From Thermoplasmatota archaeon (GTDB lineage: Archaea > Thermoplasmatota > Thermoplasmata > Thermoplasmatales > GCA-001856825): a stretch of 64,000 nt of DNA. This document shows positions 35,857 to 60,187 of the stretch, in pieces. Position 1 is the first letter of the stretch. Every line of letters starts with the position of its first letter. Below the pieces are notes generated by a model that saw only the letters and a list, made by a program, of their open reading frames with translations, did not search any database and was not told where the DNA came from. The translations under genes were made by a program, and so were the position numbers. The stretch covers positions 38,039 through 102,038 of the forward strand of contig JAMCUN010000019.1 of the NCBI GenBank assembly GCA_023381415.1, read 5' to 3'.

Positions 35857-36008
35857 GAAAAGCATAAAGGGGAAGGATGCGAAGCCGGACCTAAACATTC
35901 ACGTACGTGTCCGAATATTGGCTTTACCAAGAGATCTAAATTGTAGACAGAACCTATAGTAAAGCTAAAGTCTTCCATTGTCCAGTAAGACTTTGTTGCT
36001 GCTCTGAT

Positions 36009-37379
36009 TGTATAGTAAATATTCTTGGTAGCCTGCTTTTCCCTCCAGCGACACTCGTCGATGCTTAATGTCGATTTGGAGGTGGAAAAGAAGGAAAGAC
36101 AATAAGGTGAATATGAACGACTATGTGGTAGGAATTGACATAGGTGAAAAGGAGAGCGTGGCTACATACATGTCCCCATCTGGAGACATACTCGACCATT
36201 TCAGCTTTGAGATGAACGACAACGGTTACAATCTGTTCAAAGAGAAGGTTCCAGATGAGGTGAGGATAGCTTTTGAGGCATCCGGTCTTGCGTATGTAGT
36301 TTACAACAGGCTTAAATCTCTTGGGTATTCTGATCTCACTGTAGCACACCCCAAGGAGCTGTCCTGGATAGTAAAGTCAAAAAAGAAGAACGACCATGTT
36401 GATTCAGTAAAGCTTGCAAAGCTTCACATGGTCAACATGATCCCTGAGTCTCACCTGTTGAATGAAGAGGACAGAATATTCCGAGATCTTTTGGTACAGA
36501 GGATGAAACTGGGTCAGGAGATAGCGAGAATGAAGACAAGCATCATAGGGTACCTTAAGAGAGAGGGTCTTTATGACAGTCTGCCTGAGAGCACCGATAA
36601 TTTCTCCGACAAGAGGAGAAAGGCAATGGAGAACCTTAGGTTCAACAACGACAAGGATGTAGTACTCAAAACGATGTTTGAAAGGCTTAAATTCCTTGAG
36701 AACCAGATCTCTCCCATAGAGGAGAGGATCAAATTGAAGGCCAGGGATTCTGAGGATGTCCGTCTCCTTATGACCATCCCAGGAATTGATTATTACCTAG
36801 CTTCTCTGCTTTCCAGTTACATAGGTGACGTGAATAGGTTTGATAACGACAGCAAATTGGCATCATTCTTCGGTATAGTGCCAAGCAACCGTGACTCCTC
36901 CTCAATAATAAGGAAGGACCACATGTCAAAGGAGGGAACCAAGACTGCAAGATGGGCTCTCTCCATAGCAGTAGATACGGTGAAACTGAGAAACAAGCCA
37001 ATAATGGAATATTACAGTCATCAAGTCATAAGGACATCTTCCGCTAAATTGGCTCACGTCCTCACTATGAGGAAGCTGATCAGGATGATATACCACATGC
37101 TTTCCGAGAGGAAGGAGTGGAAGTATGAAGATCCAGGGCTGACTGACAAGAAGCTGTCAAACCTGGAAGATTGATGGAATGTTCGGACATACTGGGTATG
37201 ACTGTCTGCTCCACTGCTGTCATTCAACTGGCACCATTGCCTTTGCTTTGAGTGCAGAGATTCCCCTCCCTTATATTGTCAATTTGCGTCCTGAGCGCTC
37301 ATACCTGTTTAGGACAAAGGGGAATCGGGCAGACGGTTATCCAGGTCCACAGGACATTTCAAATATCTGGAGTGTATAG
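36009..37379 (+). mobile_element. IS110-family element A (boundaries tentative)
   Basis: IS110 transposase plus conserved 5' hairpin and 3' non-coding structure; TGTATAG occurs at 36009-36015 and 37373-37379. Confidence 0.7.
36113..37174 (+). CDS. IS110-family transposase (DEDD domain + Transposase_20 domain)
   Basis: VVGIDIGEKESVATYMSP, VAHPKELSWIVKSKKKNDHVDSVKLAKLH, LLMTIPGIDYYLASLLSSYIGDVNRFDNDSKLASFFGIVPS, HMSKEGTKTARWALSIAV. Confidence 0.92.
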   Translation: MNDYVVGIDIGEKESVATYMSPSGDILDHFSFEMNDNGYNLFKEKVPDEVRIAFEASGLAYVVYNRLKSLGYSDLTVAHPKELSWIVKSKKKNDHVDSVKLAKLHMVNMIPESHLLNEEDRIFRDLLVQRMKLGQEIARMKTSIIGYLKREGLYDSLPESTDNFSDKRRKAMENLRFNNDKDVVLKTMFERLKFLENQISPIEERIKLKARDSEDVRLLMTIPGIDYYLASLLSSYIGDVNRFDNDSKLASFFGIVPSNRDSSSIIRKDHMSKEGTKTARWALSIAVDTVKLRNKPIMEYYSHQVIRTSSAKLAHVLTMRKLIRMIYHMLSERKEWKYEDPGLTDKKLSNLED

Positions 37380-37380
37380 C
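37175..37380 (+). ncRNA. Candidate IS110 bridge/seek RNA region of element A
   Basis: Non-coding 3' segment conserved with element B; nested stems gattcccct(37259-37267)/aggggaatc(37318-37326) and gtcct(37288-37292)/aggac(37311-37315). Confidence 0.45.
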
Positions 37381-37510
37381 TATGTGAGGGAAAAGCAGGC
37401 TGAATATTTACATACCTGAATGAATGATTAGTTCTTGTTCAGCTGGAGTTTCTTCGTCTCTTCCTTCCTGGGTATGACTCTCGAGGTTTCGTAGTCTGCC
37501 CCGTATTTCT

Positions 37511-47172: not shown

Positions 47173-47287
47173 TCATAATATATTGAATATTGGCTTAAAT
47201 TTATTTCTAACACAGAGAGCATTAATAGGAAACACGCGCGATCTAAAGTGAGGTACATTGAGTGTCACTTTTCATTCTCTCTTTGAC

Positions 47288-48666
47288 TGTATAGTGAATG
47301 TTTTCATCGGTCCGTCTTCCTTGAGCGACACATGTCAGTAGATAGTGTCGCTCCGGAGGTGGATAAGTATGAAAAGATTGAAAAAGAATATGGAAAACAT
47401 GAACAGCCCAGTGGTTGGAATAGATGTAGGGGAAGAGAAAAGTGTTGCTACTTATCTCTCTCCCGATGGAGATGTGAAGGACAACTTCGAATTTACAATG
47501 AACTCAGAGGGATATGAGAACTTTGCATCCAGGATACCTAAAGATACCAGGATAGCATTTGAGTCATCAGGTTTAGCTTACGTGGTCAACAACACTCTCA
47601 GGCAGCTTGGTTACAGCGACATAACGATAGCTCACCCCAAAGAATTGACGTGGATCGTGAAGTCTAAGAAGAAGAATGACAAGGTGGATAGCTTAAAATT
47701 GGCGAAACTGCATTTAGTCAACATGCTTCCAGAATCTCACCTGTTGAGTGAGGAAGACAGAATATTCAGGGATTTGCTGATACAGCGGGTACGGTTAGGT
47801 AAGGAGATAGCAAGGATGAAGGTATCAATAATAGGCTACCTCAAGAGGGAAGGACTGTTTAATTCTCTTCCAGACAGCCAGGATAACTTCTCATTAGTGA
47901 GAAGGAAGGCTATGGAGAATATCAGGTTCAACAACGACAAAGATCTGGTACTAAAAACGATGCTAGACAGGCTTAAATTCCTCGAGGATCAGATTTCCCC
48001 GATAGAGATGAGAATAAAGTCAAGGGCAAAGGATTCAGAAGACATCCGTCTCCTAATGACTATCCCGGGGATCGATTATTATCTAGCTTCCCTCCTGTCA
48101 AGCTATATAGGGGATGTCAAAAGATTCCCTAATGAAGCTACGCTGACATTATTCTTCGGTATAGTTCCAAGCAACAGGGATTCTTCCTCAATAGTCAGAA
48201 GGGGCCACATGAGCAAGGAGGGAGCAAATATCGCCCGGTGGGCCCTCTCCATTGCAGTGGATACCGTTAAAATAAGAAACAGGGCAATTGGTGAATACTA
48301 CAATAGACAGAAAGAGAGGACGGGTTCAGGAAGCCTTGCCCATGTGCTCACCATAAGGAAACTGATAAGGATGATATACCACATGCTCTCAGAGAAAAAA
48401 GAATGGAAGTATCAAAACATGGCGCTCACTGAGAGGAAGCTGAACAGCCTCGATGATGATTGAAACGTCTGGATAAATGGGGTATGGAAGTCTGGCCAAC
48501 TGCTTTTTGAGACATGGTCAGCAACGCCTTCCATTTGAGTGCAGAGATCCCCCTCCGTTTTATTGTCAGTTTGTGCCCGGAGCACTTATGCGTGTGTACG
48601 GTAAAGGGGAATCAACCGGATTTCTATCCCAGTCTACAGAACGTTTCAAATATCGGGAGGGCATAG
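47288..48666 (+). mobile_element. IS110-family element B (boundaries tentative)
   Basis: Paralogue of element A including 5' hairpin and 3' non-coding region; TGTATAG at 47288-47294, GCATAG at 48661-48666. Confidence 0.7.
47369..48463 (+). CDS. IS110-family transposase
   Basis: Collinear with 36113-37174 protein; RBS-like ggaggtgg just upstream. Confidence 0.92.
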   Translation: MKRLKKNMENMNSPVVGIDVGEEKSVATYLSPDGDVKDNFEFTMNSEGYENFASRIPKDTRIAFESSGLAYVVNNTLRQLGYSDITIAHPKELTWIVKSKKKNDKVDSLKLAKLHLVNMLPESHLLSEEDRIFRDLLIQRVRLGKEIARMKVSIIGYLKREGLFNSLPDSQDNFSLVRRKAMENIRFNNDKDLVLKTMLDRLKFLEDQISPIEMRIKSRAKDSEDIRLLMTIPGIDYYLASLLSSYIGDVKRFPNEATLTLFFGIVPSNRDSSSIVRRGHMSKEGANIARWALSIAVDTVKIRNRAIGEYYNRQKERTGSGSLAHVLTIRKLIRMIYHMLSEKKEWKYQNMALTERKLNSLDDD

Positions 48667-48667
48667 C
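48465..48667 (+). ncRNA. Candidate IS110 bridge/seek RNA region of element B
   Basis: Shares TTTGAGTGCAGAGAT[T/C]CCCCTCC...AAAGGGGAATC...TTTCAAATATC.GGAG with element A; stem 48546-48554/48605-48613. Confidence 0.45.
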
Positions 48668-48948
48668 TATGTGAGAGGAAGCCGGACCCAAACATTCACA
48701 TGCGTGTCCCAATGTGCTCATGTGCTCAGACTTTAAAGCGGAATTAGGGTCCACACTCATCCCACACACTACGTCCTTCTCTACTGATTTCTTTCCAAAC
48801 GTGTTATCACCACATTTCAATGTTATACTCATACTAAATAGTACTTTGTGCAAAATGCCTAAAAGGACGTCAGCTTACGCATCAGACCATATCCGTTGTG
48901 AGCTCCCTCAAGCATCAAAAATCACCCATTACAGGAATGCGGCGTGGT

Positions 48949-58660: not shown

Positions 58661-60187
58661 ATGAACAAAGCACTAACAGTAGCAATAATAATGATACTGG
58701 TTGCAGTTTCTGCTGGCTTCGCGTACGGTTATGCAAGCACCTCATCAGCACTATCTTCTGCAAACTCCAAAAATTCAATGCTCAACGGTGAGATATCAGC
58801 AGACAGCGGTAGTATTACACAGCTGAAAAGCGATTTAAGTCTCTACATTAACAACACGAAATTCTTGAATCAGGAAGTGAATAACAGTTCATCCCTTTCC
58901 GTACTTCAGAATGCATATGCACACTGGGATGGCATAGCAATCGAGAACTCTTCTCTTGTGATGTCTGAATACGTGACAAATTCGACTCTGCAGTGGATAG
59001 GTGGTCCCCTTTCTGGAAACTATTCCGGCGAATCTTCCATATCCGGAGTGTGGTCTAAGTTCTTCGCCCTGTGGAGCGCCGTGTGGTTCTACACACCTTC
59101 TCCGCCCTCAGTGAATATATCCGGCAGCAGTGGAACGGTAAATGCGGAGGTTCAATTTCTTCTGACATCCTACAAGACCCCGATGCAGGTTCAGTACCTG
59201 AACATATCCTACATGCTGAATTATGAGGAGTCAGCTGGTACGTGGTCAATTTCGCACGAAGTGTGGCATATAGTATCATCTGGGATAGTATCCTATCCTG
59301 CGTCACTCGTATCAGCACTGCAGTCGCAGAGCATAATGGGTGCAGCTTTCACACACTGGAATGACATTGCAATAGAGAACGTCTCGATGATAATGGCTGG
59401 TTATGCAAACAACGCCACGCTGGTGTGGATAGGAGGACCGCTGTCGGGGACATACAACTACAGCGAAATTCCAACCGTGTGGACAAAGTTCTCAAATCTG
59501 TGGAGTGCAGTCTGGTTCTATTCTGAGAACCCACCGGCCGTGAGTGAATCAAACGGAAATTATTACGTCAATTCGACTGTACAGTGGGTCCTGACCTCTT
59601 CTTCAACGCCCCTGCAGGTGAACAGCATAGTCACAAATTATTCTCTGGAATTCACGTCCGGCCCACAGCTCAAGATAGTGAAGGAAGTATGGCACATAAT
59701 CTCCGCTTCCCTGGTCTCATACTCATCGGCTTCCTACGAATCTCTTCAGGGATCGGCAATAGGGAATTCGGCCTTCTCGCACTGGAATGCAATTGCAATA
59801 GAGAATTCTACTCTAGTAATGGAAGAATACCTTAACAACTCGTCCCTCCAGTGGATAGGTGGAAAGCTGGCAGGAAACTACACTAACTACTCACAGATCG
59901 AAACAGTATGGAACAAGTTCTTCTCGATATGGAATGCAGTATGGTTCTATTCAGAAGCCCCGCCAGTGACAAATGCAACGGTATCGGGAGGAGTCGTGAC
60001 GGGTGGCACAGTGACTGCTGACGTGCAGTTCGTTGTACAGAGCGCATCGAATCTTTCACAGTTCTCCTACATAGACGTCGTCTACACGATCCACTACGCA
60101 TACGTGAACGGAAACTACTACATAGTATCGGAAACATTTGACAACGTTCAGTCGGGTACATTGAGTAACGTCGGGACTTTCACCTAA
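58661..60187 (+). CDS. Secreted protein with three tandem ~141-aa SnoaL/NTF2-like repeats
   Basis: N-terminal signal/anchor; three units with HW[DN]xIAIEN...[QV]WIGG.L[SA]G.Y...VW.KF..[LI]W.AVWFY...PP. Confidence 0.75.
   Translation: MNKALTVAIIMILVAVSAGFAYGYASTSSALSSANSKNSMLNGEISADSGSITQLKSDLSLYINNTKFLNQEVNNSSSLSVLQNAYAHWDGIAIENSSLVMSEYVTNSTLQWIGGPLSGNYSGESSISGVWSKFFALWSAVWFYTPSPPSVNISGSSGTVNAEVQFLLTSYKTPMQVQYLNISYMLNYEESAGTWSISHEVWHIVSSGIVSYPASLVSALQSQSIMGAAFTHWNDIAIENVSMIMAGYANNATLVWIGGPLSGTYNYSEIPTVWTKFSNLWSAVWFYSENPPAVSESNGNYYVNSTVQWVLTSSSTPLQVNSIVTNYSLEFTSGPQLKIVKEVWHIISASLVSYSSASYESLQGSAIGNSAFSHWNAIAIENSTLVMEEYLNNSSLQWIGGKLAGNYTNYSQIETVWNKFFSIWNAVWFYSEAPPVTNATVSGGVVTGGTVTADVQFVVQSASNLSQFSYIDVVYTIHYAYVNGNYYIVSETFDNVQSGTLSNVGTFT

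What the first reader, a model, noticed from the sequence alone, without database searches (positions are those of the whole stretch)
37175..37380. Candidate bridge/seek RNA in the 3' non-coding end of IS110 element A
Seen: about 205 nt of non-coding DNA follows the transposase and is strongly conserved in blocks with element B. It holds nested stems: gattcccct/aggggaatc enclosing gtcct/aggac, with a variable loop between. Known: IS110/IS1111 recombinases use an element-encoded RNA with target- and donor-recognising loops; in the IS1111 group it lies 3' of the gene. Inference: this is the guide RNA of an archaeal IS110 lineage.
Basis: partly seen in the sequence, partly recalled or inferred. 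Interest (0 to 1): 0.85.

Follow-up and report, generated by a model that had tools for sequence, protein, structure and literature searches.

The report
Archaeal jumping-gene guide RNA
The stretch after this archaeal transposase gene encodes a folded guide RNA whose loops match both the ends of the jumping element and the DNA site it inserted into, so RNA-guided insertion of the kind recently found in bacterial IS110/IS1111 elements very probably also runs in a deep lineage of Thermoplasmata archaea.

Summary
The 3' non-coding end of element A (element 36005-37416; RNA about 37181-37358) belongs to an RNA family found here only in Thermoplasmatota archaea. Its fold is supported by covariation: 129 compensatory cells against 45 in shuffles, 0/500. 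It has two recognition loops. The target loop holds an 8-nt guide antisense to the right flank and a 5-nt+TG guide matching the left flank; elements' own flanks fit their own RNA far better than others' flanks do (0/100000 permutations each side; 25 elements 0/50000). The donor loop copies the element's right end (0/20000) and, more weakly, pairs with its left end (76/20000). One homologue's joined flanks restore an intact amino-acid permease gene, fixing the boundaries. Layout is IS1111-like: 3' RNA, long subterminal repeats, top-strand guide first. The recombinases form their own deep clade (placement outside IS1111 not significant) with an invariant Ser-Ser where IS110/IS1111 references have Ser/Thr-Gly. 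Transcription and activity are untested.

The parts
36005..37416 (+). Element A, 1412 bp (core TG counted once, at the left end)
   Evidence: Left end TGATTG and right end CATACC aligned with homologues. Boundary rule checked on L008, where the joined flanks restore one permease frame.
36005..36047 (+). Left end of A with left subterminal inverted repeat (GTAAATATTC..AGCCTGCTTTTCCCTC, imperfect)
   Evidence: Complementary to the right end at 37387-37413; conserved in homologues
36048..36074 (+). Hairpin in the left end before the ribosome-binding site (short and imperfect in A)
   Evidence: 8-13 bp stems of different sequence with a mostly conserved GTCAG loop in 13 of 15 elements; A is one of the two poor ones
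36068..37174 (+). DEDD recombinase gene of A as the longest ORF; the true start is probably downstream (the protein is conserved from about ATG 36113)
   Evidence: Pfam DEDD_Tnp_IS110 and Transposase_20, NCBIfam NF033542 above cut-off, IS621 structure match E 4.8e-9, D/E/D/D present and Ser-Ser motif
37181..37358 (+). Guide RNA of A, extent of the covariance model
   Evidence: 154 bits, E 3e-33 with R1 (A is one of the 18 training sequences); fold support
37218..37227 (+). Right-target guide (TGTCATTCAA), antisense to the right flank
   Evidence: Family-level match 0/100000 permutations. A itself fits 6/8 only when shifted by one nucleotide.
37244..37250 (+). Left-target guide TGCTT plus core TG, same sense as the left flank TGCTC|TG
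   Evidence: Family-level match 0/100000 permutations. A 4/5, the mismatch being a possible U.G pair.
37259..37326 (+). Donor arm, closed by the stem gattcccct/aggggaatc
   Evidence: Helices 7, 8 and 10
37279..37283 (+). Donor guide TCAAT, antisense to the left end (CAAT pairs with TGATTG)
   Evidence: 76/20000 permutations; rests mainly on one substitution pair
37301..37307 (+). Donor guide ATACCTG, copy of the right end plus core
   Evidence: 0/20000 permutations, several sequence versions
37387..37418 (+). Right subterminal repeat, right end CATACC and core TG
   Evidence: Aligned right ends
47284..48704 (+). Element B, 1421 bp, same family (recombinase ORF 47345-48463, true start probably ATG near 47370)
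   Evidence: 73% protein identity; ends aligned; hairpin 47323-47353
48467..48645 (+). Guide RNA of B
   Evidence: 148 bits with R1 (training sequence)
35880..35913 (+). Lone right end of a B-like element just left of A, followed by TCCGAAT
   Evidence: Nearly identical to B's right end 48677-48710 (sequence)

Best explanation
The 3' non-coding end of the element is transcribed into a guide RNA of about 180 nt that the element's DEDD recombinase binds. One loop pairs with both halves of the genomic target: 8 nt antisense to the right side, and 5 nt plus the TG core matching the left side (so pairing with its bottom strand). A second loop pairs with the two joined ends of the excised circular element: 7 nt matching the right end, 4-5 nt antisense to the left end. 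The recombinase brings the two DNAs together and swaps strands at the shared TG, so the element inserts with no duplication beyond the core. Shown here: conserved fold, guide-target and guide-donor matching across elements, element boundaries. Inferred: transcription, RNA binding by the recombinase, circle formation and strand exchange, by analogy with IS621 and ISEc11.
For: Covarying fold: 31 of 47 pairs with compensatory changes, 0/500 shuffles, slid controls far lower. Target guides: right 5.67/8 self vs 3.59 other, left signal confined to 5 nt plus core, 0/100000 permutations each, wrong-strand and swapped-order controls negative; 25 elements 0/50000. Donor guides: 0/20000 and 76/20000. 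Flanks are host DNA: L008 joined flanks give one 459-aa permease. RNA found directly behind recombinases not used for the model: L057, L058, L059 at 46-56 bits, with left-target guides 4/5 and 5/5. Recombinase family with RNA-guided members.
Against: No transcript or activity data. Element A fits its right target only one nucleotide out of register. The held-out right-target test needs a third loop register to be significant (two registers P = 0.13). Several copies (L011, L035, L012, L120) fit their right flank no better than background. Sequences are related, so permutations overstate independence; the donor left-end guide rests mainly on one substitution pair. The fold was derived from the alignment on which it was counted.
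Confidence: 0.9

Rival explanations
1. The conserved 3' end acts as DNA (recombinase-binding repeats at the right end) or as a terminator, and is not a guide.
For: The last 35 nt do hold the subterminal repeat and an extra conserved inverted repeat ATGTGA..TTTACAT.
Against: Compensatory changes run through more than 150 nt upstream of that repeat, and loop letters follow each element's own flanks, which a terminator or binding site would not do.
Confidence: 0.04
2. The family uses the guide RNA, but element A itself is an inactive or mis-inserted copy with a decayed junction or guide.
For: Only one copy of A in the genome bins; right flank out of register and left-end hairpin degraded.
Against: Recombinase frame and catalytic residues intact, donor guide matches its own right end 7/7, RNA scores 154 bits. 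Not in conflict with the main explanation at family level.
Confidence: 0.3
3. The compared flanks are really parts of longer elements, so guide-flank matching is internal homology and not target recognition.
For: A-type right flanks share a hairpin (L014, L043, G011:C18), and B-type right flanks share TGTCCCAA.
Against: In L008 both flanks are permease coding sequence restored exactly on joining; L006 joined flanks are also one open frame. Flanks differ between close relatives in step with the guides (L045, L020, L016).
Confidence: 0.03

Closest known systems
seekRNA / bridge RNA of the IS1111 group (ISEc11, ISPa11, ISKpn4; Siddiquee et al. 2024, PMC11187229)
   Same: RNA 3' of the gene, long subterminal inverted repeats, top-strand guide 5' of the bottom-strand guide (the order was re-read in an ISEc11 copy: CAGTATTT antisense, then GTGAAAATA sense), and no target duplication.
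   Different: R1 finds no match in the ISEc11, ISPa11 or IS4321 loci. The recombinase is in a separate deep clade with Ser-Ser in place of Ser/Thr-Gly, and is longer (about 350-370 aa vs 334-340).
IS621 bridge RNA (IS110 group; Durrant et al. 2024, PMC11208160)
   Same: A bispecific RNA with a variable target loop first and a conserved donor loop second, each with two guides that meet at a core dinucleotide.
   Different: IS621 RNA lies 5' of the gene and its bottom-strand guide comes first. Here the RNA is 3', the order is reversed in both loops, the core is TG, and the donor guides sit in a multi-loop around a hairpin, as Durrant et al. describe for many IS1111 members.
Other Thermoplasmata and haloarchaeal IS110-type transposases (L023, L025, L036, L129, L134)
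   Same: DEDD recombinases of the same superfamily, Ser-Gly motif
   Different: About 27-34% identity to A or B, Ser-Gly motif, and no R1 match in those loci

Membership tests
IS110 superfamily (DEDD recombinase elements) | Recombinase with DEDD RuvC-like and Transposase_20 domains and catalytic D, E, D, D | tested here: met
   residues aligned
IS110 superfamily (DEDD recombinase elements) | Ser-Gly (or Thr-Gly) after G..P in the C-terminal domain | tested here: not met
   All 11 members of the lineage have Ser-Ser; the serine is kept, the glycine is not. Siddiquee et al. report SG/TG, occasionally TA.
Bridge RNA / seekRNA system | Element-encoded structured RNA in a non-coding end | tested here: met
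   (structure and location; transcription not shown)
Bridge RNA / seekRNA system | Loop with guides for both strands of the target | tested here: met
Bridge RNA / seekRNA system | Loop with guides for the donor (joined element ends) | tested here: met
   Right end strong, left end weak
Bridge RNA / seekRNA system | RNA expressed, bound by the recombinase and required for recombination | not testable with these tools
   Needs RNA-seq, pull-down and a transposition assay
IS1111 group | Subterminal inverted repeats of 7-17 bp or more | tested here: met
   For example GTAAAATCTC..GGTCAGCC in L016 and L006; imperfect in A
IS1111 group | Long non-coding region and RNA 3' of the gene | tested here: met
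   About 242 nt after the gene in A; RNA model match there in all intact copies
IS1111 group | Top-strand guide 5' of the bottom-strand guide | tested here: met
   the reverse order was tested as a control and failed
IS1111 group | Transposase related across its length to IS1111 transposases | tested here: inconclusive
   ISPa11/ISEc11/IS4321 form a separate 100/100 clade; a tree joining them with the archaeal clade is worse but not rejected (AU p = 0.19)
IS110 group (IS621 type) | RNA 5' of the gene, bottom-strand guide first | tested here: not met

The most novel reading that the evidence does not exclude
A third recombinase lineage of the superfamily, with Ser-Ser at the active-site motif, that evolved or kept the IS1111-style layout independently of the bacterial IS1111 group. 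If so, the place and order of the guide RNA would not simply track recombinase descent, as reported for ISfinder elements.
Probability: 0.35. Interest if true: 0.65.

Novelty: new variant of a known kind. Interest (0 to 1): 0.5.

Why it matters
It extends RNA-guided DNA recombination to a deep archaeal lineage with guide-target evidence from natural insertions, and gives a covariance model for an RNA that matches no Rfam family. The mix of IS1111 layout with a non-nested recombinase and a changed motif bears on how the RNA moved between element ends. Thermoplasmata are known for acidophiles and moderate thermophiles (own knowledge), so the recombinase may be a robust starting point for programmable recombination tools.

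Tried and rejected
Single-sequence folding as evidence: A significant, B not. My first reading that the left-target guide is CTGCTC at 37206-37211, 5' of the right-target guide: dropped, because the 3' strand of the loop carries the signal and the lead came from inspecting A alone. Viral contigs: no relatives. Phages: only distant IS110 proteins at about 20-29% identity. Rfam: no match even at E = 1. Identity of the A-type target: its palindrome is seen beside three insertions, but no clear uninterrupted copy was found in relatives.

Full report
What is there. The window comes from a Thermoplasmatales-type archaeal metagenome-assembled genome (closest named relatives: I-plasma and Thermoplasmata MAGs). 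It carries two full elements of one family, A (36005-37416) and B (47284-48704), whose recombinases are 73% identical. Both proteins match the two IS110 Pfam domains, NCBIfam's 'IS110 family RNA-guided transposase' above its cut-off and, by profile, the solved IS621 and ISCro4 recombinases.

Observation. Single-sequence folding is significant for A (z -3.0) but not for B (z +0.6), so comparison was needed.

Comparative set. Homologous elements were collected from GTDB contigs and from whole genomes of the relatives, the order and the class. Aligned ends give a common element: left end TGA(C/T)TG..TAGTAAA, right end TTTACATGCG and variants followed by TG, long subterminal inverted repeats, a hairpin before the ribosome-binding site, the recombinase gene, and about 240 nt of 3' non-coding DNA.

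Fold. On 18 sequences the proposed fold has 47 pairs; 90% of cells pair; 31 pairs show changes on both sides; there are 129 double-change cells against 44.6 (sd 5.2) in shuffles, and 10-33 when partners are slid. The fold was derived from the same alignment, which flatters it, but compensatory changes on this scale are hard to explain otherwise. It has a long outer stem, a target arm (37214-37257 in A) and a donor arm (37259-37326). A covariance model (R1) finds 27 RNA matches in 15 of 117 genomes of the order and only genomes already known in a phylum-wide sample of 293. It also finds the RNA right behind the recombinases of L057, L058 and L059, which were not in the model (46-56 bits). No Rfam family matches.

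Target guides. For 18 elements the right flank (after the core TG) was compared with the 5' strand of the target loop, and for 11 elements the left flank with the 3' strand. RNAs fit their own right flank (mean 5.67 of 8) better than other elements' flanks (3.59); none of 100000 permutations reached this. On the left none of 100000 permutations reached the self score (20 of 100000 on a non-redundant set). The signal ends after 8 nt on the right and 5 nt plus core on the left. Matching the wrong strand, or the 5' loop strand to the left flank, gives nothing (all). Copies not used to set the register: L121 7/8; L057 7/8 and 4/5; L059 7/8; L058 5/8 and 5/5; L122 and L124 5/8; L120 3/8. The right-side held-out test is significant only when a third loop register is allowed (two registers P = 0.13; three, none of 50000 simulated sums reached the observed). 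That extension was made after seeing these sequences, although the controls had the same freedom. Over all 25 elements the result is 0/50000 in every register setting tried.

Donor guides. A 7-nt RNA stretch copies the element's right end plus core and follows it through ATGCGTG, ATACGTG, ATACCTG and GTATCTG (0/20000). ATACCTG occurs in the A group and also in L045, whose recombinase lies in another branch of the lineage. The other donor guide (TCAAT with TGATTG, TCAG with TGACTG) is weaker (76/20000) and rests mainly on one substitution pair.

Boundaries. In L008 the flanks, joined with one TG, restore a single 459-aa amino-acid permease frame across the motif GAIIGAGIF|V (PF13520, E 9e-52). 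This shows that the compared flanks are host DNA there and that the only duplication is the core dinucleotide.

Element A itself. Donor guide and right end agree 7/7; the left-target guide agrees 4/5, the mismatch being a possible U.G pair; the right-target guide fits 6/8 only one nucleotide out of register. A may be a mis-inserted or decayed copy. The claim is strong for the family and weaker for this one insertion.

Relation to known systems. In layout it is IS1111-like: the RNA lies 3' of the gene, the subterminal repeats are long, and the top-strand guide precedes the bottom-strand guide, as reported for ISEc11, ISPa11 and ISKpn4 (PMC11187229) and re-read here in an ISEc11 copy. IS621 has the opposite order and a 5' RNA (PMC11208160). 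The donor nucleotides sit in a multi-loop, as Durrant et al. note for many IS1111 members. The recombinases form one deep clade (100/100), and ISPa11, ISEc11 and IS4321 form another; joining the two is not favoured but not rejected (AU p 0.19). All 11 lineage members carry Ser-Ser where IS110/IS1111 references have Ser/Thr-Gly. I therefore call it a new variant of a known kind, and do not file it as an IS1111 member.

Literature. Text searches were made in an open-access library only. Two papers hold both 'IS110' and 'Thermoplasmatales', with one mention of IS110 each; they were not read. Only the two founding 2024 papers were read, in parts. Durrant et al. predict RNAs for most ISfinder elements, which may include archaeal ones; their supplementary tables could not be checked, so priority for archaea in general is not claimed.

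Not shown: transcription, protein binding, circle formation, recombination.

Noticed in passing
35880-35913: A lone right end of a B-like element lies about 90 bp left of element A, with no left end or gene; its right flank TCCGAAT resembles the B-type target TCCCAAT.
   Followed up: partly
36048-36074 and 47323-47353: A hairpin with a mostly conserved GTCAG loop precedes the ribosome-binding site in 13 of 15 elements, with stems of different sequence. It may limit read-in translation or be a second RNA signal.
   Followed up: partly
37383-37416: Conserved inverted repeat ATGTGA..TTTACAT around the right subterminal repeat (last helix); role unknown.
   Followed up: no
L043 and L014 right flanks; G011:C18:1881-1970 (L090): A-type insertions sit in one arm of an inverted repeat, CTGCTCTGTTKAATGAAGA..TCTTCATTCAACAGAGC, with a conserved ATTGTGTCTA spacer. 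Nature of the repeat unknown.
   Followed up: partly
36455-36468: The 14-mer CTGTTGAATGAAGA, as in the A-type target, occurs once exactly in the genome bins, and that is inside element A's own recombinase gene. Perhaps chance.
   Followed up: no
L019 (G001:C16): Apparently chimeric element: left end of one subtype, right part and RNA of another, with a frame break between them.
   Followed up: no
L121 (G113:C23), L123 (G082:C7): RNA and right end present without a recognisable recombinase end just upstream; possible solo RNAs or decayed copies.
   Followed up: no
58922-59880: Three diverged direct repeats about 430 bp apart inside the 508-aa ORF at 58661-60187.
   Followed up: no
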